64,000 bases of DNA from Parelaphostrongylus tenuis (Eukaryota; Nematoda; Chromadorea; Rhabditida; Metastrongylidae): the NCBI GenBank assembly GCA_019055375.1, contig JAHQIW010007254.1, positions 62,001 through 126,000 on the forward strand, given 5' to 3'. How positions within the stretch are numbered: position 1 is the first letter of the stretch; each line of letters opens with the position of its first letter. Positions 24,741 through 64,000 of this stretch are shown here, piece after piece. The notes beneath the pieces are model-generated. The model was not told where the DNA came from. It did no database searches and was given only the letters and a program-made list of their open reading frames with translations. Position numbers and translations under genes: made by a program.

Positions 24741-24746
24741 TCGCCA

Positions 24747-31164: not shown

Positions 31165-31300
31165 GAAATCTTTATTCAAAAAGATTGAGTGATACGCACA
31201 AATTCGACCTCAGGGGTCCTCGGTAAGGGTGAAACGCAAGTTCATCTCCCGCCTGAGATCGAATTTTTGAGTATCACTCGGACATTTTAGGTGAACATTT
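31165..31300. repeat. Foldback made of two family D ends
   Basis: TTGAGTGATACGCACAAATT...CCTCAGG is followed about 70 bases later by the inverted CCTGAGATCGAATTTTTGAG...ATCACTC. The two family D ends face each other. Confidence 0.6.
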
Positions 31301-32145: not shown

Positions 32146-32149
32146 CATT

Positions 32150-33740
32150 TATACTGCTACGAACAGAAAACACTCAGTTTTGCTGAACAAACTAGATGTT
32201 ATAGGTGCTAGATAGAAGAAATTGCAGTGGCAAAAACAGCGTCTACGCAGAACACTGCTTGATAGTACTGAGGAAGTATGGCGAATATTTCAGGAAAGAT
32301 TACATTAAATGCCATGCAAGTGTGATTTTGCACATCATCAAAAGTGAGAGTTTTTTGAAATGAAAAAACGACTTCTTTTGCTCAACAAGAATTTTACATA
32401 AGAGTTATAGTAACCATTCGAAAGCCTAAATTTCTGGCTACTGCCCTACGCGTTCCTTTTATGAAAAACTCATCAACTCACATGTGAAGTGCGATTTTTG
32501 TTATTCAACTAGGAATTTTTTTCTCCGGTGCCAAAAAAAAAACTCCAGATAAAACGTATGACTCTGATACTACAAAATTCCCCCTAAACGGCCATATTCT
32601 TTTCGTTTTTCCAACGAAATAGTAGTGAAAATAGGCGACCGGTGAAAGCATAATTTTATGTTGAATGCTACCGCGTTACAAAAGGGTTCTCTTCAAAAAA
32701 AAAAAATAGCACGTGCGGCAGCAACCAAAGACTTGAGCTTTTGTATTTCATATTGTACTTTCATATAAAGCTCTTGTCCAGTGAAAGAGGTCGTTTCTTC
32801 ATTTGTTACCCTATAACAGAAAAGAACCAAAATAAGAATTTAGATCACTAAATTAGTCAAACGGGTATCAGTGAGATTTCCACTAATCTTACCATAAGCT
32901 AAGCTTGTCGACTGGAGTGTGATAACTCAAAAGTCAGCAAGTTCATCTCAATTTTCATACGAGGGCCGTTATTTTAACAGCTTATGACCAATGGATATGT
33001 ACAGTTAGACAGTGTTTGGTTTACAACTAACTAATTGCCGAAAGTAACGTCATATGACCTTCATAGTCATGTTCGACTGCATATACACTGAATGTACAAA
33101 TAAATGCGCTGTGGCATAGGCAAGTAGCTTTGAAGTTCAAGGAGGATTCTAGAGATATGTAGAAATTGAGGAAGTCTCAAGACAAGTATTATGTCATGCG
33201 TGGTTGATGTTAGATCTGTTTCTAAAGCCCGTTAGGTAGCCTAGTGAATAACCGGCACAAGCTACATTTTATACAGCATTTCCACGGAAAGTGAAGTGAG
33301 CAATAAAAATGTTCTAATTAAACGACATTAAGTGTGCCAGATTTACATCGAAGACAACAGGACATCAGTTAAAGGCATGCACAAGGTGGCAACGAACTAC
33401 TCTAAATTACCTCTACTATCAAAAGAGCTGCATATGTAACAAAATTGAATAGAATAATATGGCTAAAGAAAAGCATAATAATGAAATTCTAAACCGTTGG
33501 AGTAGCGTCACTAATACGCTTTTTTTAACATCGTAGTTCAGAACATGAACGTAAATAAAATGTGGTATCTAACAGGAGATCAGAATATTTAATCGGACGA
33601 AAAAGCTACAATATTTGTTGATGCGGCTGTCTTAAGCCCTGAAATAAATGGAATCATTGCAGCATACACGGAAGAGAACAGAGAATGGCGATAAAAAATA
33701 TTTTGTTACATTTCCGTATTTCGTAATCATTTTGAGCTCT
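32150..33740. other. No gene seen
   Basis: AT-rich, with scattered family E-like phrases (AGTAACCATTCGAAAGCCTA near 32410). No exon could be supported. Confidence 0.45.
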
Positions 33741-33749
33741 TTGGGGAAA

Positions 33750-34800
33750 ACGTATTCTTTTCTTTTCTTAGAATTTAGAAGTCACTCGATAACTCACTTG
33801 ACAGTAACTGGGGTTTACTTCATTCCTAAACTGGCCTTTCAAGTGTGCTGAAGCAGCAAAAATAGAATTGAATTTCACATTCGACGCGTTTTTCTTTAAA
33901 CAGAGCTTTCTGTATAGATTTTTGGTATCGACCGAAAGTTTAAACCTCGTAATTCTAATAGTGCACTTTTTAACACAAAATGCTTTCTTACTGCACTGCA
34001 GAAGCCGAAATAAGATTACCTTTCACATTTGGCGCGAGTTATCGCGCGTCTCTCGAATCTCACTGTGCGCAACGATCTCAAAGCCGCCTCGAAAAGACGC
34101 GATTTTCGCTATTCACTTTAATATGAATATATATGTTAGCCGGAATATGTTAGCCGTTTCACAGGAATTTTTTGTTTTTCCGTATTTCACTTTAGGAAGA
34201 AACTTTGTCCAAACGTTCCTTCTACGGGCATGAGCTTTTCATTTCCTTTTTTATATTGTCAAATAAACCCACTACTAAGCTTAAGCCTAAGCAGCGTAGG
34301 CTTAAAAGCGCGAAACGTGAACATTTTTTTGGCTCCTCCAACGCTTTATGAAGACGTCAAAAATCCTACACAGATTTAGAATCATGTAAATTGATGCTAC
34401 CAAATAACTACTAAGAGTCTGTTAGAGGACTATTCACAAGTACTAGTTGCTTCGCTGCCGTTAGTTACAAATGTTGCGAAATCCCATCCATACGGCTACT
34501 TATATACCGTAGCGGAGCTGTATTTGCGAGCCTACTGTGTAAGAAATTACGAGCCAAATGTGAAACTAAGTTTCATTTTCACTGCTACAGCGCACTAAAA
34601 GAGGCCTCTAAAAAACCAAGTATAGTATCAAAGTCATCGAGATTCAAGAGTTCGAAGGGTACCAAAAGTGCGAAGGAAAAGCTCTGTCCAGCAAAAGACG
34701 CGCCGACTGTGAAACTCAATTTCATTTTAGCTGTTACAGCGCATTAAAACTAGAGATTTAAGATATCGAATGGCTACTAAAACTCTAGTAGAAAAAAACG
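33750..34800 (+). repeat. Dispersed repeat family E, several units
   Basis: About 150-bp units share GAAACTCAATTTCATTTTAG, CTGTTACAGCGCATTAAAA and ATTCAAGAGTTCGAA (34560-34800, two units). Related text occurs in 33850-34250. The open frame 33868-34233 lies wholly in this repeat and is not called as a gene. Confidence 0.55.
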
Positions 34801-34809
34801 GAAAAGTGT

Positions 34810-36320
34810 TGTCGCCAAAAGCGAAATTTTTCGACGCCAGTAGCATTAGGAATGCTAAGAGGATATGTGAAAATGTAGGGAGGCGAAAGGAGATAGGATC
34901 GAAGACATGAGGCGATATGGAACGATATTAGTCCCTGTACGAGGTCACACAGAACATGGTGAGATATCCACACAGACACACATTACAGGCATCCACATAA
35001 CCAAACAGACAAACGAGTCGTAAAGTAGAACAAGCGATCATATCAACGGGATAACAGAGCAAGTTTTTGACAACATCGAAAACTTCAAGCTACTATTTTC
35101 AAGATCGCAACTCATGTCTAAAAACACATAGATGATTAATTAATCATTTATTACCACTTAGAAACGAGCACATTCAAAAAAGACGAGAAAATCAAATTAT
35201 TATGAGGACAAATAAGTGAGAAATAAATACACACACAGTTATCGGTCGGCAGGCATCGAGTAGCTGTTGAGTGTACAGCACGAATTCACTAACACTTCAT
35301 CCAGGTGTTCACATCATACTGATAGGAAAACGTGTATTTTCTATTTCATGATACTGCTATCCTTCAAAGTTGAAATAATAGTTAATAGTGAAAGAAACGC
35401 CGAAAAGCACTATAGATTTCAGTGTAAAACGAAAAATACCTCGATGTCAATCGATTGATATCGATTGATGGTTCCATTGATTGCTACAGAAGACGTGATA
35501 GAAATCAGTCAGCAGAGCGTCATAAAAAAAACAATGTTACATTCTCACCACAATGTCCCAAATCAAGCATCCGTATTGTAGAGTTATGCTGTTGTTTGGA
35601 CTGATGCCATCGTTAATTCATTTCCTTTATATTAAATGAGACGAATAATTTCAAATTGATCAAGCGCAACCTAAAACATATAACATAGTATCGCCATTAT
35701 TACCAGTAAAAAGTGAAAAAATTCTGTTTTCTGAGAGGAAGATCCCTTAAGTTTCATCTTTCTTTTAGATTTTTACTTTGATAAATTGAAACTTTGATAT
35801 TGATCTAATAGAGTTCTCTTGAAATTAGTCTTCTTTTGCATGATAGTTATATATAGAAAAAATGAGTGATCAGTTGAAAATTTGTCATGTACTTGAAGGG
35901 TGAACCTGAAGGCCATTGCAATTAGGCGATGTCAGGTGAATGACCTCGCTACGAGCACGATGTTCAATGACTGGAATAACATCAACTATGAATGTCAAGT
36001 GTTCGAAGTCAGTCACTCATAATAGAGAAAAAAACTATCTTATCAGTGTCACATGGAAGTATATCAAAGAGCGATAAACTTTTCATATAGAAAAATTCAC
36101 TAATATTGTGCCATTCGGACATTGCGATTTAAGGTGGTTAATTGAAGAGCTATAATACTCCAGTTATTTCTTTACCAGTCATAAAAGAGTGCAAGAATGC
36201 ACATAAATAAACCACATCTTTTCTAAATTTTAAAGAATTTTTATGTCGGAATGCACTGAATTTCATAGCGAACACCGATACAAAACAGGCTGTTCACCAA
36301 AAAATTTTAGCTTCCTAAAA
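34810..36320. other. No gene seen
   Basis: Nothing recognisable on either strand. Confidence 0.45.
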
Positions 36321-36329
36321 TAAAAAAAA

Positions 36330-36560
36330 AAATTGCCAGAATGTTACGAAGTTATCCTGGAGTTGAACTCTACATGGAACCGTCACCCACAGATTAATTC
36401 TGTTTTTTTTATCGAAAAGATCTAACGCAAAATAAGAGTAAACATTGATGGACATGGTTGTTGAAGGAGGCCAATCTGGTTGAGTGCGAGCGTTGATTTG
36501 CATACAGTCGCACGTTTGATCCGTTCCGCTCGATAACTCTCACCCGACGACTCTCTTGGA
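36330..36560 (-). other. Coding-like stretch, unrecognised
   Basis: A GC-richer pocket within AT-rich DNA reads open on the minus strand in two frames (one gives SSGTDQTCDCMQINARTQPD, the other VIERNGSNVRLYANQ). It could be an exon, but splice sites are not convincing. Confidence 0.2.
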
Positions 36561-36859
36561 ATCTTGCTAGTTATGTGGAATATGCATCAAAACTTGGGGA
36601 TGCTGAGTGATAACCTTCAAAAATATCACGCAAGGATGTTTTCTAATGATATTTAACTAGATACTTGGATAACATCGACGGACAGTTCTTGTAGTCTTAA
36701 ATGCAATTTTCATCAAACGTGAATTTCACTGCTTGGGCAAATATTTCTTCCCTGGAAATCAGATATAGTAGCCCTGCCAAAATGTTCCAAGGTCGTCGCC
36801 ACAAACAGGTGGCCCACCTTTGTTTTCCAATGAAAGTTTCTTTTAGAGCCCATTCAATT

Positions 36860-37160
36860 TCCGCACTAACTTATCATTGATAGGTCTTTCGGTTGTTGTG
36901 GGAAATGTGAGCTTGCGAAATTTTGCACTACTTGCCATATATGCACCGCTTGCACTTTTGGATGAATGTTTTGAATGACCTAGATGTAGAAGGTTCATGC
37001 CTCTTGCCTAAAATGTCACTGTCTGTGACTGACTTTCACTCAGATATTGTTCTGAGCGAATCAGATTCAGTCAGGCTGTGTCGCTTTCTTAGACCACTTA
37101 GAGCGTCTATGATGATGTTGTATAGTGGCCTGTTTCTACTTGTGATTCTACCTAGTATAT
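36860..37160 (-). other. Coding-like stretch with stops, possible pseudo-exon
   Basis: Minus-strand reading gives RKRHSLTESDSLRTISE, a stop, then SVTDSDILGKRHEPSTSRSF and KTFIQKCKRCIYGK in the same frame. Such a Ser-rich phospho-site-like text broken by one stop suggests a decayed exon. The plus-strand ORF of 79 codons here is likely its shadow. Confidence 0.22.
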
Positions 37161-38469
37161 AATGAAAAATCATGTTTTCTAGCGTGAGCAAATTTGCCTA
37201 TGTCTTAGCTGAATCAATGAATTTGTTTCAGTTGCAGGTGAAAGTAGGGCACGTGTGTAGCTTATGCTAAATTAGACCGCCTACATTCGTTGCTTGAACG
37301 ATCCGAAAAATCCTTTCTTTCTCTTTATATCTCATACGACAAACAGCGCACACAATATCACATTTTTTGCATAGGGTCAACCGAATGGGTTCGTACCTGT
37401 TTTTTTTTCTGGACGACATCATCGGAATTTCTGATAAAAGTTTTTGATACTTTTGTAAATCCGTCGCAATATCACTACACTCGTTATAGATCTGTGCTGT
37501 CTAAGATGGCCTAAATATCTAGCGACTTCTCTGACTCATCTTGCACTTTTGAGAAGTTGAGTTGAAATGAGACTCTCCACATTCGCAGCCCTTCTGCAGG
37601 AAGAAACATTCATAAGTGACTTTTAGGACCCCATTACAAATGCTGATTACGTTTTAAGTAGCTTTTCACGCATACATATACACATACTTAGCCTTTCAGG
37701 TAAACCTCGAATTACTGGGTCATGTGAATAGGTATATGAAAAAAATCGACGCGTCGAATCTAATTCAGATAATTGCAAACACATTCATGTTTTCATGCAT
37801 AAGTTTGCATAAGTACATAAGAAAGGTCCGTGTCCTCTCAGAGCAACCAAAAAAAAAGGGAAATCTTTGAAAAGATTAACTGTTCGTCAACGCTTGTCCA
37901 TTTTTGCTTCTATAAACCATCTCTTTCAGCTGGAGACGGTCGTCACAGCGAATTAACAAGCCTTATGGAATTTCTCACGTAGGATCGACTTGCATTGAAT
38001 AGTAAATCAAATGGTTTGCCTTGTTTTGTATCGTGAACATGTGCAAATGCATTTGGTAGTTTCAAGATTGAAACAAGTATTATCGATAAAGTATCTCTGT
38101 TCAGAACTCCTACAAAATCGAAATTTCAATTTCAATTGCTCGCTTCCGAATTCTTGGTGAAAAAATCACAAGTGGTCTTTAGATAATAGATGAAAGATGC
38201 AAGCTACCACAACGAAATTCGAATAGTTCTTGTGTAATCATTCGAAAATTTTTGCGAGGTAAATCACACTTAACGTATAACAATTTCTATCAAAGGGCTC
38301 TTCATACTTTATGATAATTAAAGTCCGCAAAACAATCAATCGCCACTTCGCCTTAAGAACCAAAAAGTCATGGAATCCTCAGTATACCTAGCTCTTCTAC
38401 TTCAATGCTTAGTAGCTTTCATTGGGACACTTAGTGGTATGCAATGAAAGCAAGTTTTTTCAATCACCT

Positions 38470-41400
38470 GTATCACCTGTCATCCCCTTGATTGTCGAGT
38501 GACTCGAGCGGGTACCAGCAGCACTTCCATTTTTCCCTATCGAGTGCAAGAGTAGCCAGTGGGTTCTCCTCGCTCTAGGGATTAACTGAGGATCACATCT
38601 TTCTTCTATGTCTTTCGTGAAGAAATCGGATCAACGAGTCGGTGGTCTTCCCGTGGTGTGCTTGATGTCCCGAGGACTCCAGTCGGTAACGGCTTCGTCC
38701 ATCGGTTGTCGTTGAAGGGCATCACGTGTCCGGCCCGCTTATTTTCGATATCCTGGAGTGTAGAACGGCGCCCTTGATCTTCGATCTTTGGCACAATGTA
38801 AGGCGTAACCTCGAATCCTTTCTCTCATTTGCGAGATACGGGATACTCCTAGCATCGACCTTTCAACTGCGCGTTCATTAACGCCAAGCAACCTTCCATC
38901 CTGTTTACGTAGCGCCACGTTTCTGCTGCATAAGTTAGGGGGGGGGGGGAGATGATCGTCGAGTCGAAAAGGTGGACACGGAGTCGGATGTTCTTTGTCC
39001 TCTTCACTCCATCTTCGATGCTCTTGAACGTATCCCAAGCCGCTCTTTTCCTCCTGTTCAACTCTGGAGCTAGGTCGTTCATCATGTTAATTTCAGGACC
39101 TAGATAGACGTGACTGGAGCATTCGGAGATTGCCGTTCCATTGAGCTTGAATGAGGCATTCAAAACCCATCCGTTCCTCATGAACATCGTTTTCGTTAGA
39201 TTTAGTTGAAGACCAATCTTGCTACAGGTGTTATCGAAATCGGTCAACATTCGTTCCGCCTGGCTGATGTTTGGTGTTATGAGAACGATATCGTCAGCAA
39301 AGCGAAGATGGTTCAATTGTCGACCATAATTTTCACTCCCATATCGTCTCATTCTAATGTTCGCATTACGTTTTGGAGGGTGGCAGTAAATGATTTGGGT
39401 AAACTTGTATGACCTTATGGAACCCCTCTTCTTACGTCGATGGTGATATTGTTGTATAACCGAGATAGTGTGGTCGTGTAATCTTTATATACCTCACGAA
39501 TGATCATTATGTACCGAGTAGGGACGCTCTCGTTATCTAGAGCCTCTATAACCGCTTCTGTCTCCACTGAATCAAAGGCTTTCTTCAAATTGATGAAAAT
39601 GAGACATAGCGGTATTTTGTACTCTAGCGAAACTTCGATGAATCATGCGGATGTAGCCTATCGTACTATATCCTGTTCGGAATCCTGCTTGTTCGCATGG
39701 CTGCCCTACGTACACTGTTCGCAGGCAGATTGGGCGATAATTGCCTATGTCGTGAAGATCTCCCTTTTTGAACAACAACATGGTCCTGTTTCCTTCCACT
39801 GAATGGGAACCTTACATTCTGACAGGTAACAGTGAAGAGACGAGCCAGGACGTTGATGAGAAGTGGCGGTAGGTTCTTCAGGTGTACTGGTCTAATCCTA
39901 GCTGGACCGGGTGTTGTTCTGTTCTTCACCTACTATATACCATGTCGGATTTCGGAGGTGAGGACCGGTGGAACGACATATTCATCCTCTTTCAATTTAT
40001 ATGGCAGTAAGAGGACATGGCTAATGAAGGGATCCGAGTAGTACTGGTGGATGATTTTCTCCATTGCCCTTTTGGATACTGTGAGTGTCTCGTGATGGAA
40101 TCGGAGTGCAATCATATTGGTTTTATAATTGGCGAAGCCTCGCTGGGCGTTGCGAATCTTTCCAGCTTCTGCAGCTTTTGCATAACTGCTGCTCGTCTCT
40201 CTTCAAGGTCTTCTTATATCGCCTCTCTGCAACGTTTCGCAAGTTCAGGCGTGACGTTTCGAATGCCAGTAGCTGGTATGAATCCACGTTGACGTATCAG
40301 CTCGAGTGTTCGTGGAGACAGGCGTCTCTTCGTGACTTTAGGACTCTCTGCTTTCACAGCGCTGACGTAGAGATCTTGAATGAGCTTGTCGTATTCTTCG
40401 TCGATGTTGCCAACAGCGGTATCTTCCCAGGAGCCGATTGATGGCCTGAATACATCTCAGTTTATGGTAGTTTTGGAACTTCGTTGTTTGAATCTAATGG
40501 CTTTCTCTCCTTTCCGCGAAAAATGGAACGTTACACGGAGGAAGCGATGGTCTGATCCCGTGTAGAACTTAGGAACAACGATGAAATTGGTCAGGCAGAA
40601 CCTTCGATTTACTATGATGTGGTCTATTTCGTTATGGTCTCTCCATTGGGCGACTACCACGTCCAACGTTGGGAGTGAGGCTTTTGGAACTGTGAGTCAC
40701 CATGGATGGTTTGGTCGTCGTGATAAACTCAGATAGCCTCTCACCCTGTACATTTCATTTTAGTCCGTGGGTTCCAATGTGAGGCTCTTCAGACGTTCTC
40801 CTAGGTCCATTTTTCTCATTAAAATCTCCAACAATGACCTTGAAGAAAGCACTGTCTTCTCTGAAGAATTCATCGAGGTCCATCTAAACGCTCCGGCTTC
40901 GTTTTCGTCATAGCTTGATGTTGGTGCGTAAGTAACGAAGATGGTCAAAGCCGGCATTGAACCACATCGTCTCAACCGTAATCGTCCGATACGGGTTGTT
41001 AGTTGTTCAAATGAAGTAATGTTTACGGTCAAATTCGATTTGGCGAGGGCGCCAGCGCCGCCGACACCTTTCCTATTGCATGTTCCAAAAATAGTTCTTC
41101 TTCTCCGCTGTCATAAGCAGCGTGAAAACGATGACGTCTTCTCGTTTCCGCCAAGCCAATGACCTCGTACCTTATCCTTCTTGCTTGAATCAGTATATCT
41201 GCTGTAGCTCATTCGTGAGCAAAGGTTCTTCCATTGTAGTTACAGATCGTCATTTTAGACCGTTTCAATCTTGGCAGCCGAGTTTGGTCCTGAAATTTTG
41301 GCAACCTTCCATACTCGTCGTACCTGGTGCTGCCGTACCATGGGCTCTTTGGGGTTAGAGGAAAGAGGCCCATATTTGTTACTGTTTTTTAGCATTTTTA

Positions 41401-50045: not shown

Positions 50046-50081
<36 letters not shown>

Positions 50082-50100
50082 CGTATTATACATATATATG
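50044..50100. repeat. (AT)n microsatellite
   Basis: A run of AT dinucleotides with CATATA interruptions directly left of the hammerhead repeat pair. Confidence 0.9.
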
Positions 50101-50154
50101 TAACTTGATAACATATTTTAAGCCTTTTAGGAAACTTGTTATAGCACTTATACA

Positions 50155-50197
50155 GTGCTAGACATACGTTTCGACCTTTCGATCTCATTAGTAGCAC
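50155..50197 (-). ncRNA. Hammerhead ribozyme motif with one core change
   Basis: Minus strand: stem I GTGCTA (50197-50192) and TAGCAC (50160-50155) pair perfectly. The core is CTAATGA (50191-50185), stem II GATC-GAAA-GGTC, GAA (50172-50170), stem III AC-GTAT-GT (50169-50162) and cleavage-site C at 50161. Everything fits a type I hammerhead except the third core base, A instead of G (G5), which should strongly reduce cleavage. Confidence 0.75.
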
Positions 50198-50361
50198 GGT
50201 GCCTTTCGGTTTAGTCAGTTCGTTGTAAGGGGATATACCTCCTACATACATAAGAATAGACGCCGAATTGCTTACACAGTTGGTAAAGTGATGAGATCAT
50301 TTGATTTTTTATATGCAGGGAGTATATTCCGCTGCAAGAAACTGACTCAAAAGAAGGCCAT

Positions 50362-50402
50362 CGCGCTGCTGATGAGGATGAGAGGCCGAAGTGAAAGTCC
50401 AC
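50362..50402 (+). ncRNA. Degenerate hammerhead copy (right arm)
   Basis: It has an intact CTGATGA, but GAAG in place of GAAA and weak stems. Together with the left copy it lets the ancestral core be inferred. Confidence 0.45.
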
Positions 50403-50494
50403 CACTATATAAGTGCCATGAGAGGTTTATAATACGTTATCAGATTAAATACTGCTTTATGCGAGACTTGAAAAAACAGTCGATAAACAAGAAA

Positions 50495-50566
50495 GGATAT
50501 ATATATACATATATGTATATATATATGCATGTATATATATATTTATATATATATATATATATATCA
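50495..50566. repeat. (AT)n microsatellite at the 5' side of the RTE copy
   Basis: TATATATACATATATGTATA-type runs end 15 bases before the RTE 5' region. Confidence 0.9.
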
Positions 50567-50577: not shown

Positions 50578-53500
50578 TTTCGAGTGATCCCGCCCTATTA
50601 TTCGCGAGGGCACGTGGCGCGTCCCCACGTGGTGGATAGGGGAATAAACGCGAACCAAAAGCAACCGTGTGCTTCCCAAAGGCACAGGTGGATTGAGGAG
50701 ACGAGCTCCCTGCTTCTGCAGCACCGATTTGACATAACTCAATTTTTACGAGTCAAATCGGCCAAAATCCTGCTATCAAGCGGCTGGAAAGTATATAGGA
50801 GGCGGGTGAGAGTCGCTTCTAACATATAAGCTCCTTCCGCTCCTCCAAGAGGGACTGGCAAGCTACTCTTGAGTATCCAGTCCTCCCCTTCCCCCAGTTT
50901 AGAGCCTAGCAAGCTTTATGTTGGCTATCAAACCGCCAGAAATAACGATAAAAATGGGCCTCAGACCCGTGACCTCGAAAGAGCCGCGGTACGGCAGCGT
51001 CGGGTAGGACGAGTACGGAAAGACAGCCAGAAACTCAGAGCTAAACTAGGCAGTCTAATTGGGAACGGGCTAAAATGACGATCTGTATCTATAACGCGCG
51101 AACACGTACACACGAATTCGCCGTAAAGATTTGTTGATGCAAGCAAAAAGAATAAGGTACGACTTCATAGGCCTGACTGAAATGGGAAGATGCCATCCTT
51201 TTCGCGATGTTTATAACACACAGAAGAACTGTTTCTTAGAACATGCGAATAAAGAAATGTCGGCGGTGTTGGAGTTCTCGTCATATCGTTTCGGACTATG
51301 ATTATCAATTTATTTGAACATTTGAGAGCCGGTGTAGGACGTTTACGTTTGAAACGATATATATCAAACTTTGATCACCTCCGTTGCTTACGTACCAACA
51401 GCAAGCAATCACCAAGATGAAGTCGCAGCGTTCTATATGTATCTCAAAAAATTCTTCTGAGAACACCATAAATTCTTTGAGGTCACTATTGAAGTTTTTG
51501 GAGAGAAAACTGGATCTAGAAGAACGCATGAAGAACATCACATTGGGAGCCACGGACTGGAATTGAACGAACAGGCTAGGAGGCTATCTGAGTTCATCAC
51601 GACGACCAAACCATCCATGGTGACTCACAATTTGAAAAATCTGACTTTCTACGGTGTACATTGAAAGTCTCGCAATGGAGGGTGCCATAACGAACTAGAC
51701 CACACCTCAGTGAATCGAAGGTTGTCTGACCGATGATATTTTTGTCCTTAAGTTCTACACGGGATCAGACCATCGTCTCCTCCACACAACGTTCCATTTT
51801 CTGCGTAAATAAGAGAAAGCTACTAAATTTAAACAACAAAGTCTCAAAAGCATCATATACAGGGATGTATTCAAGCCATTAATCGGCTTCTAAGAAGATA
51901 CCGTTGTTGGCAACATCGACGAAGAATACAACCAGCTCATACAAGATCTCCACGTTAGCGGTGTGAAAGCCGAGAGTCTTAAAGAGCAGACACTCGAACT
52001 GAATCGTCAAAGTGGAATCGCACGAGCTACAGACAACCGAAACCTTACGTCCGATCTTGCGAAGCGATGCAGAGAAGCGATAGGAGAAAACCTCAAAGAG
52101 AGAGGAGCAGCAGTGATGGCAGAATCTGCTAAAGCTGGGAAGAGCATTCGCAAAGCTGAGCGAGGCATCGCGAATTATAAGATGATTGCAGTTCGATGCC
52201 CTGACGGTACACTTACAGCTTCGAGAAGGGCTATGGAGAAAATCATCCACCAATACTACTCGTATCTCTTCGCTAGCCATGTCCTCTTATCTTTAAATAA
52301 ATTGATAGAGGATGAATCTTTCGTTCCGCCGCTCCTCACTTCCAAAATCCGGCATGATGCATCATCGATGAAGAATAGAACAACACCTGGTCCTGAAAGG
52401 ATAAGACCGGAACACCTGAAAAACCTACCTCCAGTGTCATCAACACTCTGATTCGGCTCTTCACTCGTTACCTGTCAGAATGCAAGCTTCCCAGGCGAAA
52501 GCAAACCAGCAATGTCGTGTCTTGTTCAGAAAGAGAGACCTTCACGACATTGGTATTTACAGTCATATCTGCTTCATGTACGTCGCCTATGAACTTTTCA
52601 CTCGAATAAGCATGAACAGGATTGACAAAACACTAGACGAAGAGCAGTCATGAGAGCAAGTAGGGCTTCGAAAATGATTTGGTACAATAGACCACATCCA
52701 CAAGATCACAAGTCTTACTGAATTTACGAGAGTACAAAAGACCGCTCTGTCTCACGCTCATCGAATTGCAGAAAACCCTTGATTCATTAGGAACAGAGAC
52801 GGTCGTAAGGGTTCTGGACACAGAGCGTTCCTACTCGCTACATACCGATCGTTCGTAAGTTACGTAAGGATTTTTCAACCATGATATCGCCATTCTATTA
52901 TGATATTAATATCGACATAAGAAGAAAGGTTCAACAAAGCAATACAATCTCGCCAAAAATATTCATTGCCATCCTCCAGAATCTCATGCGAACATTAGAA
53001 TGGGGCGATATAGGAGTAGAAATCGACCGTCGACAATTAATCCATCTGCGCTTTGCTGAAGATATCGTTCTTATAACACCAAACATCAGTCCAGGCGTAA
53101 CGAATACTGACCAGTTTCCATAACGCTTGTGGATACCTTGCTCTCTGATTGAATATGGCAGAAACGATGCTATGGGGAACGGACGAGTTTTGTATACCAT
53201 CTTCACGCTCAACAAGGCGATCATCTCCAAATGTTCCAATTACATCTGTCTAGACCTGAAGTCAATGTGATGAACGACCTAGCTTCTAAGCTGAGCACGA
53301 GAAAACGAGCGGCTTAGGGAGCGTTTGAGAGCATTGAGGACGTAGTGAACAGACCTTTTCAACTCGACGGTCATTCCTTCCCTAACGTATGTAGCAGAAA
53401 CCTGGTCACTATGTAAACAGGATCGACGATTACTGGGAGCTCTTAAGTGCATAGTCGAGAGATCGATGCTAGGAGTATCCCGTATCTCGCAAATGAGGGA

Positions 53501-53841
53501 ACGGATCCGAAGTTCCAACCTACGTCGTCATCGAAAGTCAAGGATGCCGTTCTACACTCCGGGCTATCGAAGATGAGGTGAGCCGCACTATAATGTGCCT
53601 CAACGGTAATCGATGTACGAGAGCCGTTACCGACTGGATTCCTCGGGACATCAAGCGCTCCACAGCAAGACCATCGACCCCACAGCCTGATTTCTTCACA
53701 AAAATCTAGGAGAAAGTTAGATACTCAGCGAATACCTAGAGCGAGGTGGACCCTCTGGGCTACTCTTGCATTTGACAGGGAAAAATGAAAAATGTTGCTG
53801 GTGCCCGCTCCAGTCACTCGATAATCAGCGGGGCGACAGGA
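50578..53841 (+). mobile_element. RTE-clade LINE, near full length, inactive
   Basis: It has the same layout as the copy at 38.5-41.7 kb, in opposite orientation. The leader 50590-51060 has GCACGTGGCGCGTCCCCA. Endonuclease remnants (51075-51800) include YAPTASN-like and GSDHRL-type text across frameshifts. A helical linker at 51963-52330 includes RRAMEKIIHQYYSYL. RT motifs are TPGPERIRPEHLKNLPP (52380-52440) and, at 53046-53084, LRFAEDIVLITPN, where the first catalytic Asp of FADD is Glu. The 3' end GGCTACTCTTGCATTTGAC...GGCGACAGG reaches 53841 and is followed by a short ATATATA run. Frameshifts, stops and the catalytic change make it dead. Confidence 0.9.
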
Positions 53842-53875
53842 TATATATATACAGCCTACACATATATGTATATTG
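53841..53875. repeat. AT-rich 3' tail of the RTE copy
   Basis: ATATATATACAG and CATATATGTATATTG directly follow the RTE 3' end. RTE elements often end in short tandem repeats. Confidence 0.7.
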
Positions 53876-54155: not shown

Positions 54156-54881
54156 TGTGAAACAAGGAGTTTTATGCATTTTCGTTTATTTTAAGCACAC
54201 CAAAAATGAGAAGTTCCTGTATACATTTTGGAATAGTACAAATAATTTCCAATGACTTAATCTGCACAATGTAAACGCTTTCTGCTTGATAAATTGTAAT
54301 TTGATAACACAACCTTCAAGCCCTAAAGACGGCTATAGAAATCGATGCGCGCAGAGTGAATTGTGTGATTTTCGTTGTTTGATCAAGGTTTTTTTCCTCC
54401 GTTTGCTAAGATATTTGAATTTATTGAATAACTTTGGGAGAACAAGATTTTCTTTACTCGCTCCTATGCTTTTGGTCTAGATATATATGTCTTGTGTAGA
54501 AAAAAACCTTACCTTACTGCGCAATCATTTGGAACTTGGCAATCAGTCAACTGTATTAAACTCCACAAAGGCTACCACAATAAATATCTGCAGTTACGAT
54601 CTTTCCCAGTTTTATACATGATCCAACAGTCCACAGTTTTGAGAAAATGAAAAAAAAACTCGTAATTTATCAAAAAAGATGATGTAGCCTGTATTCGATA
54701 CCTGTTCATCGGTAACTCTCAATATAACTAAGTTTATATCAATCATTTCTTTATTTCCAAATATGTCATTACTTTCTTTTCGAGTGCTTTCTTAAGACCA
54801 CAGCTCAAAATTCAATATGCCTTCCAATCATTTTTGAGCCACGCATGTCAGTGGTCTGTTAAAGGAGAGGTGACTTATAGA

Positions 54882-54924
54882 GCCCGATACACGTGTTTCG
54901 ATCATGCGATCTCGTCAGTCGGGC
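54882..54924 (-). ncRNA. Hammerhead ribozyme (type I), complete core
   Basis: Minus strand in order: GCCCGA (stem I, 54924-54919), CTGACGA core, stem II GATC-GCAT-GATC, GAA, stem III ACACGTGT (A-U and C-G closing pairs), cleavage-site A at 54888 and TCGGGC (stem I, 54887-54882). Both stems and all conserved core positions are intact. Small type I hammerheads with a very short stem III are known in PLEs. Activity is predicted, not shown. Confidence 0.85.
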
Positions 54925-55229
54925 AGTTACCCTTTCTCGTCTTTTGCCAGTCTCTGTGGTTAAGGCATATTGAATTTTGAGGCATGTTGAATAATTTGAA
55001 TAAAAATGATTGCAAGGCATATTGAATTTTGAGCTGTGGTCTTAAGAAAACACTCGAAATGAAAGTTATGATATATTAAATATACTAGCCATGAGAAACC
55101 GAGTGTACAACACACTGTGTTCATTTAGTTCTTCACAGGACATAGAGTGTAAAGCGTTCGTTGTCGCTAACTCTTATTGTGGGGACTGGAGCACCCACAG
55201 AGATTGGCAAAAGACGAGAAAGGGTAATT

Positions 55230-55272
55230 GCCCGACTGACGAGATCGCAAGATTGAAACACGTGTATCGGGC
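55230..55272 (+). ncRNA. Hammerhead ribozyme (type I), complete core
   Basis: GCCCGA (55230-55235), CTGACGA (55236-55242), stem II GATC-GCAA-GATT (one G-U pair), GAA, stem III ACACGTGT (55258-55265), cleavage-site A at 55266 and TCGGGC (55267-55272). It is the inverted twin of 54882-54924, with two differences in stem-loop II. Confidence 0.85.
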
Positions 55273-55519
55273 TCTATAAGTCAGCCCTCCTTTAACAGAC
55301 CACTGACATGTGTGGCTCAAAAATGATTGCAAGGCATATTTCCAAATACTCAGATTTGATGTATGTGGGAGGAAGTTGAGAATTCATGGATGGGGAAAAA
55401 ATTTTGAGCTGGAAGGGAACAATCGTGCCTGAGTAAAACGCTTGGAATTGCGGCATCATGCAAATTACTGGTCGGAAATAAGTGTGTCCGAAGAAGTATT
55501 CTCTGTGCATTTCCCTATT

Positions 55520-56450
55520 CGCTGTCGTATTGAAAATAGTATTTTTAACTCCTTTTTGAGTTTACTGATTAGTCAACGGCTTGAATATCGAGAATGAAAG
55601 GTGCATTTTATTTTTAAATGATTTTTACATTATGTAAAGGTGGAGTAAAATCTTCTTTCACACTCAAGCACCTTTCGCTGGACAGAAGTTTTCATTTAGA
55701 CTTTCAACAACTATACGATAGCAAAAATCTGAACGATCTCGACGATAGGCTTGATTTTTGAGAAGAACGTGTTAGTGAGTTGTTACAGCTAAGAGATTAC
55801 CGGGCTTCATGTTCGGCGCCCGTGTCGATCGCGCAGCGCAAATTAGCACGTGGCGTGCAGTGCCGCGCCGTGTGTGGAACCCAATATTGTTTTAGCCATA
55901 ACGGCAAACTAAGAGGTCTCTTTCAAAAACGAAGCATATCCCTGAAACTGTTAAGATTTGAGCTATCAAATGGGTGTGAACGTCTGAGGAAAAAGCCGTG
56001 TCCAACGAAGATTATTCACATGTGCAACACAGTTTTATTCGTCTTACTGCAACTTGCTAAAAGGATTTTTCAAAAGGCAAGCACACTATTGAAATCCTCG
56101 AAATTTGACCTATCGACTGCTTATTGTAAGATGATGGCCTGCTCTCACTGTTGCAAAATCCAACCACATACTGTGCAAGGTATGCTCAATGCATATGAAG
56201 CAGAATTTCAATCTCAGTGTTACAGCGCAACAAAAAGTTTCGTTTTTTCTAATTAGGAAGAAACAAATGAAAAACCGATCTTAATCGCTGCAGAAGAAAT
56301 TTTCACAGAATTGTTAGTAACCATTCGTAAGCTAGGCTACAGCTCCACTTCCAAGATTTTTCAGAACACCGCTTTATAGCGCCGTAAAAATCAAAATAAA
56401 ATCTGTTTTATAAATCCACGTGTTTCTTCTCTTATCTTGCTTATAATTCG
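55520..56450 (+). repeat. Dispersed repeat family E, array of units
   Basis: Units carry CACTCAAGCACCTTTCGCTG, AACTATACGATAGC, GTTACAGCTAAGAG and TGTTACAGCGCAACAAAAAG. The GC-rich cassette lies at 55813-55870. The 158-codon ORF at 55780-56256 is made of these repeats and is not called as a gene. Confidence 0.62.
55813..55870 (+). repeat. GC-rich cassette, orientation 2
   Basis: TCGGCGCCCGTGTCGATCGC... to ...GCAGTGCCGCGCCG. Its ends are partly inverted copies of each other (CGGCGC/GCGCCG). It is the reverse complement of 45431-45486. Confidence 0.75.
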
Positions 56451-58150: not shown

Positions 58151-58993
58151 ATGTCCTCAATTCCTTCCGGCGACATCAACATTCAGCCAATCACGGAGAT
58201 TATCTTCAATGCACCGTACAACGACAACCACACCTACGACGTCAAGATCTTCAATCCGCCGTACGACGACAAGCACACCCACCACATCAAGATCATCAAC
58301 GCCACTGGACGACGCATCGAATGGACGGTCAAGACGGCGAACATGAAACGTCCTGATGCTTGTGGAGCGCTCAACCCAAAGGAGGAAGCACTCGTGGCTG
58401 TATCATGCGATTCCTTCTATAATGGACGTGAGGTGTGTTTTATTTCCTGATTTACTGACTTTATGCAATATAATGTCAGGTGGTGTGCAGAACTTTGAAC
58501 GTCGATGGCAATTTCACGCTTTCCGGAGGCGCGTGCTAACCTTTGAACTACTGGAACTCGTTCTGCCACCACTCTTTTTTGCAACGCTATTGTGATGTTG
58601 GCAGGAAAGCAAGATGGCAGAAGAGACCTGGTGATGCAGTGATCAGTACGCGTCCCAGAAAATCGAGTGCGAGTTTGAATTCCATCCGACGTTCAAAGGT
58701 TTGCTTAACACTTAACACTCACACGCACTAACACTCAACCTTACTGGGTATGTACTTGTAACTCATACGACCGCTAAAAACGGTTGAATAAAAGGAATTG
58801 CATTTAGAAACTAATTATGATTACTGATTCACTTATGTTGTGATAACTTCCGCCATAGGACACCAGCAATGATCGTTTCACCGTGGTATGGTGCAGCACT
58901 CCCGAAGGAGCCGCAGAGCAGTCCAGGCGCGAATGGAACCAGGGAGATGGTATGGTCCGTAGAAAGAATCTTCCAATCGAGTACAACCCATGA
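58151..58993 (+). CDS. msp: Major sperm protein (MSP) with an internal duplication
   Basis: Exon 1 is 58151-58432 (94 codons) and exon 2 is 58859-58993, joined in phase 0 (donor GAG|GTGTGT, acceptor CCATAG|GAC). The product has 138 residues; the family has 127. It starts [13 protein letters not shown] and ends [16 protein letters not shown], the MSP signature. MSP is the nematode sperm motility protein: it polymerises into filaments in the pseudopod and, when secreted, signals oocyte maturation. It has an immunoglobulin-like fold and no signal peptide. Residues 18-32 and 33-47 are a tandem duplication of the strand reading FNAPYDDKHTYHIKI in the family. The WTVKT..MKR loop is three residues shorter than usual. 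The intron of 426 bases is notable since C. elegans msp genes are generally intronless. AATAAA at 59006 gives a very short 3' UTR. Confidence 0.92.
58202..58291 (+). repeat. 45-nt in-frame tandem duplication inside the MSP gene
   Basis: Unit 1 is 58202-58246 and unit 2 is 58247-58291. Both begin ATCTTCAAT and end GTCAAG/ATCAAG. They differ at about a dozen positions. Confidence 0.9.
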
Positions 58994-59734: not shown

Positions 59735-60440
59735 GATATAGAGCGATGTTCAAAATATCTGCATCATTTGGGATTCGAATTTACATTTTACCCTAGCAGG
59801 GGGTGCGTGCTCAAACTGTTGCACTACCATACCGGTTTTGGAACCACTCTTTCTACACTACAAGGCATCTATCTGTCAACAGCCAACCGTCAACGATCTG
59901 ATTTAGCATAGAAAGAGTGGTGTCAAAACGGGCGTCGGTGATGCAGCAGTTCAAGCATGAGCTCGGGGATAGGGTGAGGTGTGGGTTCGAGTCTTAACTG
60001 ACGCAAAAGTATTGCACATCACTCTATACCACTGGGCATATTATATCACCATACCACCGTTGAAGGCGATCAAATAAAAGAATTCTATAATCAATCGGAA
60101 TTCATTTATTTGACTGCCTCTTGCGGTGGTATGATCTTATAATATGCCCAATAATGTTTTCGCACAGCACTCTACATTACTGGGTATATTAAAGAATTCT
60201 ACTCGAGGCGCGAGCTCAATCGTTGCACTGCCGACACCCGTTTTGACACCACTCTTTTCCACGCTGCAACGCGTCGTCCATCTGTCAGCGGCCAACCGTC
60301 AACGGTCTGGAGTGAAGGGCCGCTAACGACAGTGAACCCACTGATGCTGACAGATATTGGGTTTCGATGATCAATTAGAATTCTTTTTTTGACAGCCTTT
60401 AGCGGTGGTAAGATGTTCTAATATACCCAGTGATGAGTGA
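59735..60440 (-). mobile_element. tRNA-derived repeat family C, array
   Basis: Several tRNA-like heads lie in both orientations: minus at 59830-59760 and about 60245-60205, plus at 59955-60005 (GTGGGTTCGAGTC as box B). The shared tail is ACTGGGTATATTA...ACCACCG. The phrase CATCTGTCAACAGCCAACCGTCAACG recurs. The anticodon-arm region is not canonical, so these are not functional tRNAs. Confidence 0.6.
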
Positions 60441-60574
60441 TGTGTGAAAAAAAATTGGTATCATGTGGGATGCAAACCCACATTTCACCCTATAGGGCCT
60501 TTACAAAGTCGTGTATCTAAATGGATACATCCCGTCTCGAGACAGTTATAAAAACGAATATGTAAGACACTTTA

Positions 60575-60838
60575 CCATCCGTCTTCACAATGCTTATTTT
60601 TTAAATGTGTGGATTCCAGTAACTCTAGCATTCAATCGTTCTTTCCTCTTCTTCGTGAACGCCGTAGAATTTTGGATGAGCGTGTCTCCTTTGAATTCTC
60701 GAGGATAGTCTGGCTGTGGCGCTTCATAGGGCACTCGTTGTTGCCTTTCGGATAGTGCTATGTGAGAGTAGGGAGGAGAATGAGATTTGGTGTTAGGGCG
60801 CGCCGTGACGAGCATCACGACCTTCGGCCTCAGCATAA
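60575..60838 (-). mobile_element. SINE family B copy
   Basis: Minus strand from the GAGGCCGAAGGTCGTGATGC head to the tail near 60585. The body has ACTATCCTCGAGAATTCAAA and TTCACGAAGAAGAG. Confidence 0.72.
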
Positions 60839-61049
60839 AACATTAAATGATTTGAAATGTATATGATAATATTTATTGAACCAGAGTGCGTTAAATCGGA
60901 CTAGGAGCCCATAGTTGCAGTGAACTTGAAACTTAAGCGTGAATTCTTGATATTATCATTTAAACTGAATTTAGCTTGTGTATAAAATATCTCGAACACT
61001 TGCTGTTACTTCATTGGAGAGCCATTGTTGTCATCAATACTTTTCAAAT

Positions 61050-62050
61050 TTGGTCCCTCTTCTTAGCTCGCGCTAGCATACATTGCCCACTATCCAGCAA
61101 CTTTTCCAATTCGCGCGAGAGTTCGCTTACTGCTTAACAGTTCCGCTTTACTTAATGAATGCCGTTAAGTATTGGCTGGAACGCCTCTAGTTGTCCAAAT
61201 TCGATCGTGATGGCGTGAGCGACAAAGCCAAGGCCTGTGACACTGTGTAACGAAAACTTCACTTTATGAATGAAGAGAGTTCCGTCCTCTAATCATTTTA
61301 TGCCAGTTTTCCATTATTCCGTTTCTTGTAAGGATCTACATGGAATTTGATGTGACCAGCAGCCTTGAGACGTGCATGTAGGTCGAAAGTGCTCTTGTGA
61401 TATAGGTGCAAAGCAGGAAACAGTTTCCAGCATGCCGCAGACGTGATCGGTTTTGTTCTCTTCCAGCCACCTTTCGTTGAATCCGAGATTTGATCGCCTC
61501 TTAGCGGGCGCCTCATCGCTCGGCGTCTTAAACGGAAGCACCCAGTATGAGGTTTACTCAGACAGGAATTTTCCTCCTATTCAGCTGCTTCTGTTTCTTG
61601 GAGTGCCAAGGTCAGCTTAGATAGAGTCATCCTCATGTCGTCACCACATTAGGCAGTTGCCTGGTTCTTATGGATCAGAAGGAGATTGTCACCTAGTGAC
61701 TAGTAGTTGCCATGACAGCGACGAATTCTAGCACTCTGAGCTCTTGGATGGAACTCCTCAACTTGGTGGACCGTGCTGGGGGTAGCACTTCCGATGTACT
61801 TGCAGCCCGAAAATAAGAATATCTTTCAGCCACGATGAGGAGTTAACCATTTGGGAAGGAACGCTATAAAAAATCTACTATCAGATGTCAATCCTCTCTG
61901 TTGTACACATGGACAGTTTCTTAAAAATCGTGCCGCAAAGGCAAAGTAGTCAGATACTGACGCGGAAGAATCCGTCCACATATCTATGTCACTGCTTCGC
62001 ACAAAATTTTGTGATAAAACAACATCTCCTGTTTTCATTAGTGGGTTGAA
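61050..62050 (-). other. GC-richer, coding-like but unrecognised stretch
   Basis: Minus-strand ORFs at 62038-61826 (SDIDMWTDSSASVSDYFAFA) and 61541-61298 have normal-looking composition but no family I can name. Stops separate them. A decayed retroelement is a guess only. Confidence 0.2.
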
Positions 62051-62214
62051 AAGAAAGTGGAAAAGTTGTGGAGCTCCTCTTAATGATAGACTTTTTTTCT
62101 CTTCATTTACTGTAACCTGAATGATTACGAATGGGTAACTTTATAGCCCTTTATGGACATTTGACATAAGTTTTCATTCTCTTTAAGCGCGGGGTGTGAC
62201 GTAGCAGATATAAC

Positions 62215-62885
62215 CAATGATGTTGATTGATGTGCAAAACTATGACGCCAAATGGAACTCGAACCCGCCCTTCAACTTCTTCGGAGAAGCGTGCTTAATC
62301 AGTTGCACTATAGTCGCCTGTTTTGCTGTCACTCTTTCTACTCTACATACACATAAATCGCGACATATTATCTGATATCAAACAAAATTCTTTTGCCTGA
62401 CCGCCTCTAGCGGTGGTATGGTATCATAATATACCCAGCAATGCAGAGTGATGTGCAAGACTTTTTTGTCAGGCGGGGCTTCGAACCCGCGTCTTACCTC
62501 ATGCGGAGACTCGCGCTTAAACGGTTACATTACCGTCGTCTGTTTCGACATCACTCTGCGCTACAGCACATCTATCTGTCAGCAACAAACCGTCAAAAAT
62601 CTGGCGTGGATAATCGCTATGGGCACCGAGCTTCCTTTTCATATCAAGACATAATGGGCATTGTTGATCCAACAGAATTCTTTTATGTGACCACCTTTAG
62701 CGCTGATATGATGTTACAATATATCCGGTTATATGAGGCGATGTGCGAGATTTTTGTGTCAGGCGGTACTCGAACCAGCGTCCAAAACGAGCGTAGGTAG
62801 TGCAACTTTCTCCGGATGGGATAAAATGCGGGTTTGAATCCAATTTAACGCAAAAGTTCTGCACATCACTATGTATTACTGGATA
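62215..62885 (-). mobile_element. tRNA-derived repeat family C, array
   Basis: Heads at 62330-62255, 62535-62465 and 62800-62740 read on the minus strand, each with a box B of the form CGGGTTCGA(A/G). Between them is the common ACCACCGCTAGAGGCGGTC-type block and a TATACCC element. The ORFs at 62441-63051 are shadows of the array. Confidence 0.62.
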
Positions 62886-63494
62886 TAACCTACATCACTT
62901 GATCTCTGCTTGCTCTCGAGTGAGACGAAAGATCAATGTTCATTGTTATTTGGCATGCCATAAAGTGAACGCTGTTCTCAATGATTATCACCACTGTTCA
63001 AGAATGAGCTGCATACTCAACAATCATCAGCATGTAATCTCTGCCACATAACGATATAGGAAAATGTGATAATAGGGTTAACCACAGAGGAAACTAACCA
63101 GTTACGTTGTGAACAAAAAGAAGTACTCGATTCAAAGACAAGACCATCTCAAAAGTGAAGTGACGGAGGTGATTACAGACGTGTGGTCCCAAGTGGAAAT
63201 CCCTTCCACGGTCATTATGTTGTATTGATGCCAGTTTGGAATTTACGCATCCACATCTGTACTAGTTTGAGTCAGCTATTCCAAATAACTATTCTGATAT
63301 GTCAATCACGAAAGATTTCCATGCATCGAGACATGAAGATGTGACTAATCGCGCGACTTTTCGTGAAGAAAAAATCGCTCTGCTGGTCATAGACGTAAGT
63401 TTCTCTGTTTTACTCATTTTTACTCCCTGAATTACTTGTGGAGATCCAAGGCATCGACTGTTTTTGAAGACTCGCAATAAACATTCAATATAGC

Positions 63495-63705
63495 TTTCGA
63501 GAATGTTTAAAGCCTTACCCGAGGTTGGTATGCCAGAGCCATAAACGCGTGTTTTGGAAGAACCGCCCTCTTCGTCAGGGGCCTACTCCCCTCATTAAGC
63601 CCTGCACTGTAACAAGAGAGAGGAGAATGTGGTGACGGCACAATGTACGAAATACGAGTGTATGGCTCTGGCATATAACCTCGGGTAGTGTTTAAACATT
63701 TTTGA
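63495..63705. mobile_element. Small inverted-repeat element with hammerhead-like core
   Basis: Left arm 63504-63545 (GTTTAAAGCCTTACCCGAGG, TGCCAGAGCCATA) is the inverted copy of right arm 63659-63702. Inside the left arm, minus-strand CTGACGA (63578-63572) is followed by a GAAGA/TCTTC stem and AAAACACGCGT. The GAAA box is changed, so the ribozyme looks dead. It has the geometry of the 50.1 and 54.8 kb pairs. Confidence 0.55.
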
Positions 63706-63709
63706 GAAT

Positions 63710-63890
63710 TGAGTGATGATCAAAAGCGCAGCCTCAGGCGCGAATCGAACCCGCGTTTCATCCTATACGGGGACGCGTGCTCTACCACTACACCACCGAG
63801 ACACATTTGCCCGATCACTCATTCTTCAGCCACCATATATGTTGTTGCTCACAACTCAGTTCTCTTAGGTGTATATGAAACATAATAACA
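63710..63890 (-). mobile_element. tRNA-derived repeat, family D
   Basis: Minus-strand head 63805-63729: TCTCGGTGGTGTAGTGGTAG (box A) and GCGGGTTCGATTCGCG (box B). A cloverleaf with anticodon loop CCGTATA can be drawn, but U33 is C and the T-stem has a mismatch. Flanks match the 2.7 kb copy. A pseudo-tRNA or SINE, not a working tRNA. Confidence 0.65.
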
Positions 63891-64000
63891 CTGCGAAAAA
63901 TGCAGTATAAGTACTAGAAATTTCGAGCATTAGTTATTAGGATGGCTGTCACCTCAACTGGGTTTATAAAGCGAAGTCCTATACCCAACCAAACCTGTTA

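What the first reader, a model, noticed from the sequence alone, without database searches (positions are those of the whole stretch)
54882..55272. Two complete hammerhead ribozymes facing away from each other
Both motifs have perfect 6-bp stem I, an intact CTGANGA and GAA(A) core, a 4-bp stem II with tetraloop and an AC/GU-closed short stem III. The stems and core are read directly from the sequence. They lie 300 bases apart as inverted twins, so either strand of transcript would carry one cleaving ribozyme and one antisense copy, and a read-through RNA could fold the whole arm pair together. Short-stem III type I hammerheads are known from Penelope-like elements. The inverted-pair arrangement without coding sequence could be a non-autonomous element.
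Basis: partly seen in the sequence, partly recalled or inferred. Interest (0 to 1): 0.78.

Follow-up and report, generated by a model that had tools for sequence, protein, structure and literature searches.

The report
Back-to-back hammerhead ribozyme retroelement insertion
In a roundworm genome, a small non-coding mobile element carrying a self-cutting RNA motif appears to have been copied into the DNA twice at once, in opposite directions, and an older element nearby shows the same arrangement, which hints at how such elements insert themselves.

Summary
In detail: two type I hammerhead motifs, one per strand, predicted to cut after 55266 (+) and 54888 (-). Rfam gives no hit at its gathering score, only full-length sub-threshold matches. 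The hammerhead lies in a 317-nt non-coding unit; the minus arm aligns without gaps across the unit's end-to-start junction, so the template was circular or tandem. The 573-bp insert (54764-55336) has a 12-bp target-site duplication and 4-nt microhomology at both ends. A covariance model of this pair led to an older, decayed pair 4.3 kb away (50146-50414), also inverted, 3' flanks outward, with compensatory stem changes. Arms resemble each other more within a locus than between loci, so the inversion probably arises at insertion. Best reading: retrozyme-like non-autonomous insertions in a strongylid nematode, made by Penelope-type reverse transcription primed from both strands of a staggered cut. 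Inverted copies, duplications and tails are known for Penelope; metazoan retrozymes are described as tandem repeats. Each strand has one ribozyme and the transcript should fold as a long hairpin, so this copy probably makes no RNA circles. Copy number and the mobilising enzyme are untested: the genome search did not complete (22 tries).

The parts
54764..55336 (.). Pair 1: whole insert, 573 bp, 41.5% GC, no coding sequence seen
   Evidence: bounded by 12-bp direct repeats; length and GC; no Pfam match in six frames; longest ATG ORF in a trimer of the unit is 62 aa
54752..54763 (+). Target-site duplication, left copy, TATTTCCAAATA
   Evidence: exactly two occurrences on the plus strand of the window, none on the minus strand
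55337..55348 (+). Target-site duplication, right copy, TATTTCCAAATA
54764..54959 (-). Pair 1, minus arm: part of the 317-nt unit, crossing its end-to-start junction
   Evidence: 54959-54760 aligns without gaps to positions 194-393 of the unit dimer, 200 nt, 94% (the last 4 nt are shared with the target)
54882..54924 (-). Hammerhead 2 (minus); predicted cut after 54888
   Evidence: RF00163 27.4 bits, below gathering
54960..55001 (+). Filler at the inversion junction; holds a 20-nt plus-strand copy of unit positions 13-32
   Evidence: origin unexplained
55002..55318 (+). Pair 1, plus arm: one complete 317-nt unit (42% GC)
   Evidence: 22-nt direct repeat 55002-55023 / 55319-55340 at spacing 317
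55319..55336 (+). Start of a second direct unit (positions 1-18), ending at the right boundary
55230..55272 (+). Hammerhead 1 (plus); predicted cut after 55266
   Evidence: RF00163 23.0 bits, below gathering
55258..55265 (+). Self-complementary ACACGTGT, the helix III that would be shared in a double hammerhead
50146..50206 (-). Hammerhead 3 (pair 2, minus), stem I 6 of 6 pairs with three compensatory changes; core reads CTAATGA, probably inactive
   Evidence: R1, built without it: 50208-50137, 37.4 bits, E=1e-6; RF00163 28.1 bits, below gathering; pairs counted
50354..50414 (+). Hammerhead 4 (pair 2, plus), core CTGATGA, decayed stem I (4 of 6 pairs), GAAG instead of GAAA
   Evidence: R3, built without it: 31.7 bits, E=2.6e-6; no Rfam hammerhead match; not found by R1 at E<=10
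50097..50451 (.). Pair 2: decayed inverted repeat lying between TA-rich tracts (50046-50099 and 50497-50564)
   Evidence: self-BLAST 50132-50428 inverted, 65.8%, E=1.2e-14; the outermost 29 nt on each side are a weak match, E=0.46; arm scores against shuffles; tracts

Best explanation
The feature is an insertion of a retrozyme-like, non-autonomous, hammerhead-bearing retroelement in a strongylid nematode. Shown by sequence: a 317-nt non-coding unit with one type I hammerhead; two copies head to head (RNA 5' sides inward, 3' sides outward); a 12-bp target-site duplication; arms that cross both the unit junction and the hammerhead cut site; a second, older inverted pair of the same kind nearby. 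Inferred: element RNA (a circle, or an uncleaved or religated multimer) is taken up by a Penelope-type protein, which cuts both strands of an AT-rich target with a stagger. Each 3' end anneals by about four bases (AATA to UAUU) and primes reverse transcription at one of two sites, 70 and 124 nt downstream of the ribozyme cut. The two cDNAs meet in the middle and are joined. At this locus each strand has only one sense hammerhead facing its antisense copy, so read-through RNA should form a long hairpin with the ribozymes buried, and no unit-length RNA or circle should come from it in cis. Elsewhere the ribozyme probably acts as a dimer in tandem transcripts.
For: Two hammerheads; full-length sub-threshold RF00163 matches for three of the four motifs. 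Four hammerheads in two inverted pairs: 45 of 48 cells paired and 5 of 12 pairs with changes on both sides, against 22.9-37.5% of cells paired when partners are slid. Unit of 317 nt by direct repeat; gapless 200-nt match of the minus arm across the unit junction. TSD, and both insert ends stopping just before a TATT of the unit that the target shares. Unequal 3' flanks, 70 and 124 nt in pair 1 and about 60 and 97 in pair 2, like the Penelope 'tail'. Arm identity within a locus 94% (pair 1) and 72% (pair 2) against 66-70% or no signal between loci. Published: Penelope inserts with an inverted pLTR, 8-10-bp TSDs in the cases that have one, a 31-bp tail and mostly head-to-head arrangement (PMC3846280, passages and Discussion); a purified Penelope protein that cleaves and extends both strands, prefers ATT, and starts internally at two sites that match the tail, with hammerhead cleavage not needed for insertion (PMC11167929, main text). 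The minimum-energy cofold of two hammerheads is exactly the double hammerhead in 3 of 3 combinations of the pair 1 motifs. Arms pair in the transcript, -320.8 kcal/mol, z -23.7 on 20 shuffles.
Against: No Rfam hammerhead reaches gathering score; hammerhead 4 has no Rfam hammerhead match. No Penelope protein (RT with GIY-YIG) was found in the parts of the window scanned; the RT remnant at 38.8-40 kb has its closest listed relatives in strongylid nematodes and was not shown to be Penelope. PMC11167929 saw initiation at sites not homologous to the cut DNA, whereas here there is 4-nt homology. The 42-nt filler is unexplained. The pair 1 arms differ at 12 of 200 positions, so they are either old or come from two RNAs. 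The paralogous copy of the flanks lacks the insert but also lacks the target site, so it is not a clean empty site. The isolated core prefers another fold (-12.7 against -8.4 and -13.7 against -10.1 kcal/mol); folds with 80-86 nt are no stabler than shuffles (z -0.40 and -1.33); stems I and II have pairing probabilities of about 0.06-0.11 in the 317-nt circle; 10 of 200 shuffles cofold as well as the double hammerhead. For pair 2 the within-locus percentage (72) is only a little above the between-locus ones (66-70). Only two loci were seen; the genome could not be searched.
Confidence: 0.6

Rival explanations
1. The element is retrozyme- or Penelope-like, but the inversion comes from self-priming on an antisense template or from template jumping, not from priming on both target strands.
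For: PMC3846280 prefers self-priming for head-to-head Penelope inserts with palindromes at the inverted junction; the 42-nt filler with repeated unit pieces suggests template jumps.
Against: Both outer ends show 4-nt target microhomology, which both-strand priming predicts; no inverted pair of 14 nt or more centred on the inner junction of pair 1 is listed.
Confidence: 0.22
2. The arms are the pLTRs of an autonomous Penelope-like element whose coding part was lost; the unit is not an independent retrozyme.
For: Inverted pLTR, partial direct repeat, TSD and tail all match Penelope; the short stem III fits Penelope hammerheads as described in PMC7761336 (passages).
Against: The minus arm matches the plus-arm unit across its end-to-start junction with no gap, so a unit of this size was itself the template.
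Confidence: 0.2
3. A direct tandem insertion that was inverted later, or two nested insertions.
For: Inversions and nested insertions are common in general (recalled, not tested here).
Against: The 12-nt repeat lies at the outer ends only; both ends are unit 3' positions with microhomology; the same layout occurs at a second locus.
Confidence: 0.1
4. A DNA transposon or MITE with terminal inverted repeats.
For: Long inverted arms.
Against: The outer ends are not inverted repeats of each other: they stop at unit positions 72 and 18; the minus arm runs across the unit junction.
Confidence: 0.03
5. A DNA copy of a viroid-like circular RNA with hammerheads in both polarities.
For: Hammerheads lie on both DNA strands; viroid-like RNAs can carry them in both polarities (abstracts listed).
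Against: The 317-nt unit has the CTGANGA core in one polarity only, and both arms are copies of that same unit.
Confidence: 0.03

Closest known systems
Metazoan non-LTR retrozymes with type I hammerheads (PMC7229834; abstract, passages and sections 14 and 17 seen)
   Same: Non-coding unit of 317 nt (published RNAs about 170-400 nt), GC 42%, one type I hammerhead per unit, TSD longer than 4 bp, template crossing the unit junction
   Different: Described there as tandem repeats, dimers to multimers, and the word 'inverted' does not occur; here the copies are inverted with one hammerhead per strand. Nematodes are not named in the list of phyla in section 14, which ends 'among others'
Penelope-like elements of Adineta vaga and Anolis carolinensis (PMC3846280, passages and Discussion; PMC11167929, main text)
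   Same: Head-to-head inverted copies, partial direct repeat, short TSD, tail on one side, AT-rich target; a hammerhead in the Anolis element
   Different: No RT or endonuclease reading frame; the repeated unit is only 317 nt
Dimeric hammerheads of amphibian retrozymes and of Penelope elements (PMC7229834 abstract; PMC7761336 passages)
   Same: Stem III too short alone but self-complementary, so that two motifs can share it
   Different: Stem III here is a 2-bp helix with a 4-nt loop alone and 8 bp in the dimer; activity untested

Membership tests
Type I hammerhead ribozyme | CUGANGA and GAA core, three helices, NUH cut site | tested here: met
   for the two pair 1 motifs; the two pair 2 motifs are each damaged
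Type I hammerhead ribozyme | Helices kept by compensatory change | tested here: met
   3 of 12 pairs, three sequences; 16 of 500 shuffles reach this; 5 of 12 pairs, four sequences; 7 of 500 shuffles; 'further pair types' is not above shuffles, 344 of 500
Type I hammerhead ribozyme | Score above the Rfam gathering cut-off (a curator's cut-off, not a structural feature) | tested here: not met
   sub-threshold full-length matches; none for hammerhead 4
Type I hammerhead ribozyme | Self-cleavage | not testable with these tools
   needs in vitro transcription
Metazoan non-LTR retrozyme | Non-coding unit of about 150-450 bp, GC below 50%, one hammerhead | tested here: met
Metazoan non-LTR retrozyme | Direct tandem copies with two or more hammerheads on one strand | tested here: not met
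   one hammerhead per strand at each locus; the plus arm is one unit plus 18 nt. Hence 'retrozyme-like', not filed as a member
Metazoan non-LTR retrozyme | TSD, when present, longer than 4 bp | tested here: met
   12 bp
Metazoan non-LTR retrozyme | Many genomic copies; circular RNA | not tested
   The genome search gave no answer in 22 tries; no RNA data held. Two loci in this window
Penelope-like element | ORF with reverse transcriptase and GIY-YIG endonuclease | tested here: not met
   no Pfam match over the insert in six frames; longest ATG ORF in the unit trimer 62 aa
Penelope-like element | Inverted plus direct repeats, short TSD, optional tail | tested here: met
   searches compared with PMC3846280
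TIR DNA transposon or MITE | Ends are inverted repeats of each other | tested here: not met
Dual-polarity viroid-like RNA | Hammerhead in both polarities of one unit | tested here: not met

The most novel reading that the evidence does not exclude
Retrozymes can be inserted by Penelope-type machinery that primes on both strands of one staggered cut, from circular or tandem RNA, which recurrently leaves inverted ribozyme pairs. Such copies cannot make new circles and would instead be hairpin, possibly small-RNA, loci directed against their own family.
Probability: 0.4. Interest if true: 0.7.

Novelty: new variant of a known kind. Interest (0 to 1): 0.5.

Why it matters
Which autonomous element moves animal retrozymes is an open question; Penelope is called a strong candidate (PMC7229834, Discussion). 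Inserts that combine a retrozyme-size unit with the Penelope layout (inverted copies, TSD, tail) would be structural evidence for that link and make it testable in one genome. In the open library, 'retrozyme' with 'nematode' gave one paper, whose single mention of nematodes concerns HDV-like ribozymes. 'Hammerhead ribozyme' with 'Penelope' and 'nematode' gave four, of which I looked into two, and a 2011 survey of hammerheads does not use the word in its main text. So a nematode host may be unreported, but subscription papers and supplements were not searched.

Tried and rejected
Rejected: MITE/TIR transposon (ends do not match); dual-polarity viroid-like RNA (one polarity per unit); chance for the structured motif (the bare core alone is at chance). 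The 24-nt match at 9541-9564 lacks the GAA core. A further candidate at 21949-21993 has no Rfam or R2 support and is left open.

Led nowhere: exact motif scans of viral contigs and genome contigs, 0 matches each; a protein search with the MSP-like gene, which returned one protein, the window's own; Pfam scans for a Penelope element in parts of the window. Not scanned in six frames: 1-19500, 24003-38000, the plus strand from 60402 to 64000, and the minus strand 55803-55899.

Weak points of my own tests: the TSD background (11 of 20,000 random position pairs share a 12-nt word) may include repeats and the locus itself; the arm alignment runs into the TA tracts, while one search leaves most of them out (score 107, null maximum 33 of 100 shuffles); hammerheads 3 and 4 helped train R2, so one search is not independent for them (searches are). 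My fold started the unit one base late; one search has it right.

Full report
Observation. The two motifs are present at the stated places. A structured scan finds only these two in 64 kb on both strands and none in 300 random single-strand windows; the predicted cut sites are after 55266 (+) and 54888 (-). The bare core pattern without stems is at chance. Rfam has no hammerhead at gathering score in the window nor at E<=10 in 1201 bases, but on short stretches RF00163 matches full length at 23.0 and 27.4 bits, below its cut-off of 34.

Host. The window is from a nematode: an MSP-like reading frame at about 58151-58420 whose solved relatives are nematode major sperm proteins by name. The species was not determined.

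Unit. A 22-nt direct repeat at spacing 317 defines a unit, 55002-55318, 42% GC. The minus arm, 54959-54760, aligns over 200 nt without gaps to positions 194-393 of a dimer of that unit, 94% identical. It therefore crosses the unit's end-to-start junction, and both arms cross the hammerhead cut site. The template was a circle or a multimer that was uncleaved or religated there. The unit carries the CTGANGA core in one polarity only, and its longest ATG reading frame is 62 aa in a trimer.

Insertion. TATTTCCAAATA occurs exactly twice in the window, at 54752-54763 and 55337-55348, bounding a 573-bp insert. At each end the unit sequence would continue with TATT, which the target shares: four bases of microhomology at both ends. 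The right end stops at unit position 18 and the left at 72, which is 70 and 124 nt downstream of the ribozyme cut. The duplicated target is itself symmetric at its ends (TATTT/AAATA), a feature of 0.2% of 12-mers in the window. The flanks have an inverted paralogue at 46292-45431 without the insert, but the target site is also missing there, so it is not a clean empty site.

Second pair. A covariance model of the first two motifs (R1) found a third on the minus strand, 50208-50137, at 37.4 bits, E=1e-6, with stem I fully paired through three compensatory changes. Self-BLAST showed that this motif lies in an inverted repeat, 50132-50428, 65.8%, E=1.2e-14. The arm alignment scores 140 against a null maximum of 47 in 200 shuffles, TA tracts included, and 107 against 33 in 100 shuffles with most of them left out. 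A model of three motifs (R3) then found the fourth, 50354-50414 (+), at 31.7 bits, E=2.6e-6, with the next background match at 11.5 bits. Over four motifs 45 of 48 cells pair and 5 of 12 pairs have changes on both sides; slid controls pair 22.9-37.5%. Pair 2 is decayed: hammerhead 3 has CTAATGA, hammerhead 4 has 4 of 6 stem I pairs and GAAG, and Rfam sees hammerhead 3 (28.1 bits, below gathering) but not hammerhead 4. TATAAGT just 3' of stem I is identical in 4 of 4. Pair 2 sits between TA-rich tracts, and its 3' flanks to those tracts are about 60 and 97 nt (boundaries approximate).

Why the inversion looks like an insertion product. Both pairs have 3' flanks outward. Arms match within a locus (94%; 72%, score 107) better than between loci (66 and 70%, score 47 each, for hammerhead 3's arm; no signal above null for hammerhead 4's arm). 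The margin in percent for pair 2 is small, and there are only two loci. Penelope elements are known for head-to-head inverted pLTRs, 8-10-bp TSDs in the cases that have one, a 31-bp tail and AT-rich targets (PMC3846280; passages and Discussion read). A purified Penelope protein cleaves and extends both strands with the same start sites, prefers ATT, starts internally, and does not need hammerhead cleavage for insertion (PMC11167929; main text read). There the ribozyme cut lies 26 nt and the start region 111-118 nt into the ORF, so 85-92 nt apart (my arithmetic), on the scale seen here. It differs in that no homology to the cut DNA was seen at those starts. PMC3846280 favours self-priming for the inversion, which remains a rival.

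Ribozyme action. Stem III alone is 2 bp, but ACACGTGT is self-complementary. The minimum-energy cofold of two cores is exactly the double hammerhead in 3 of 3 combinations of the pair 1 motifs (-31.9, -35.3, -33.6 kcal/mol), though 10 of 200 shuffles fold as well. A single core prefers another fold, and in the 317-nt circle stems I and II have pairing probabilities of about 0.06-0.11 (the circle as a whole folds better than all but 3 of 200 shuffles). So dimer action in tandem transcripts is likelier than monomer action, as reported for amphibian retrozymes (PMC7229834, abstract). At this locus each strand has one sense motif, and the transcript folds as a long hairpin, -320.8 kcal/mol, z -23.7 with 20 shuffles.

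Limits. Whole-genome search did not answer in 22 tries, so copy number, direct tandem copies and a Penelope partner are untested. Cleavage, circles and small RNAs are untested. Literature was searched in an open-licence library only.

Noticed in passing
21949-21993 (+): A minimal hammerhead-like motif with 5-bp stem I and 1-bp stem III, shortly before an A-tract; about 0.007 such motifs (stem I >=4) expected per strand-window and 0 of 300 random windows with stem I >=5, but no Rfam hammerhead or R2 match.
   Followed up: partly
58151-58420 (+): MSP-like reading frame with an internal 45-bp tandem duplication at 58202-58299.
   Followed up: partly
38849-39352 (-) and about 50600-53850 (+): Reverse transcriptase remnant at the first place; the second looks to me by eye like a degraded RTE-type LINE, without Pfam support.
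   Followed up: partly
54321-55870 against 46292-45431: Inverted paralogous repeat of the flanks, 69-79% identical in three pieces; what it is was not determined.
   Followed up: partly
54960-55001: 42-nt filler at the inversion junction with a 20-nt plus-strand copy of unit positions 13-32 and, by eye, a similar degenerate stretch; suggests template jumping or slippage.
   Followed up: partly
8206-8664 (-): Mos1-type HTH_48 match just under its cut-off (23.9 against 24.1 bits), a possible mariner remnant.
   Followed up: no
2713-2783 (-) and 63730-63802 (-): Two tRNA matches in Rfam.
   Followed up: no
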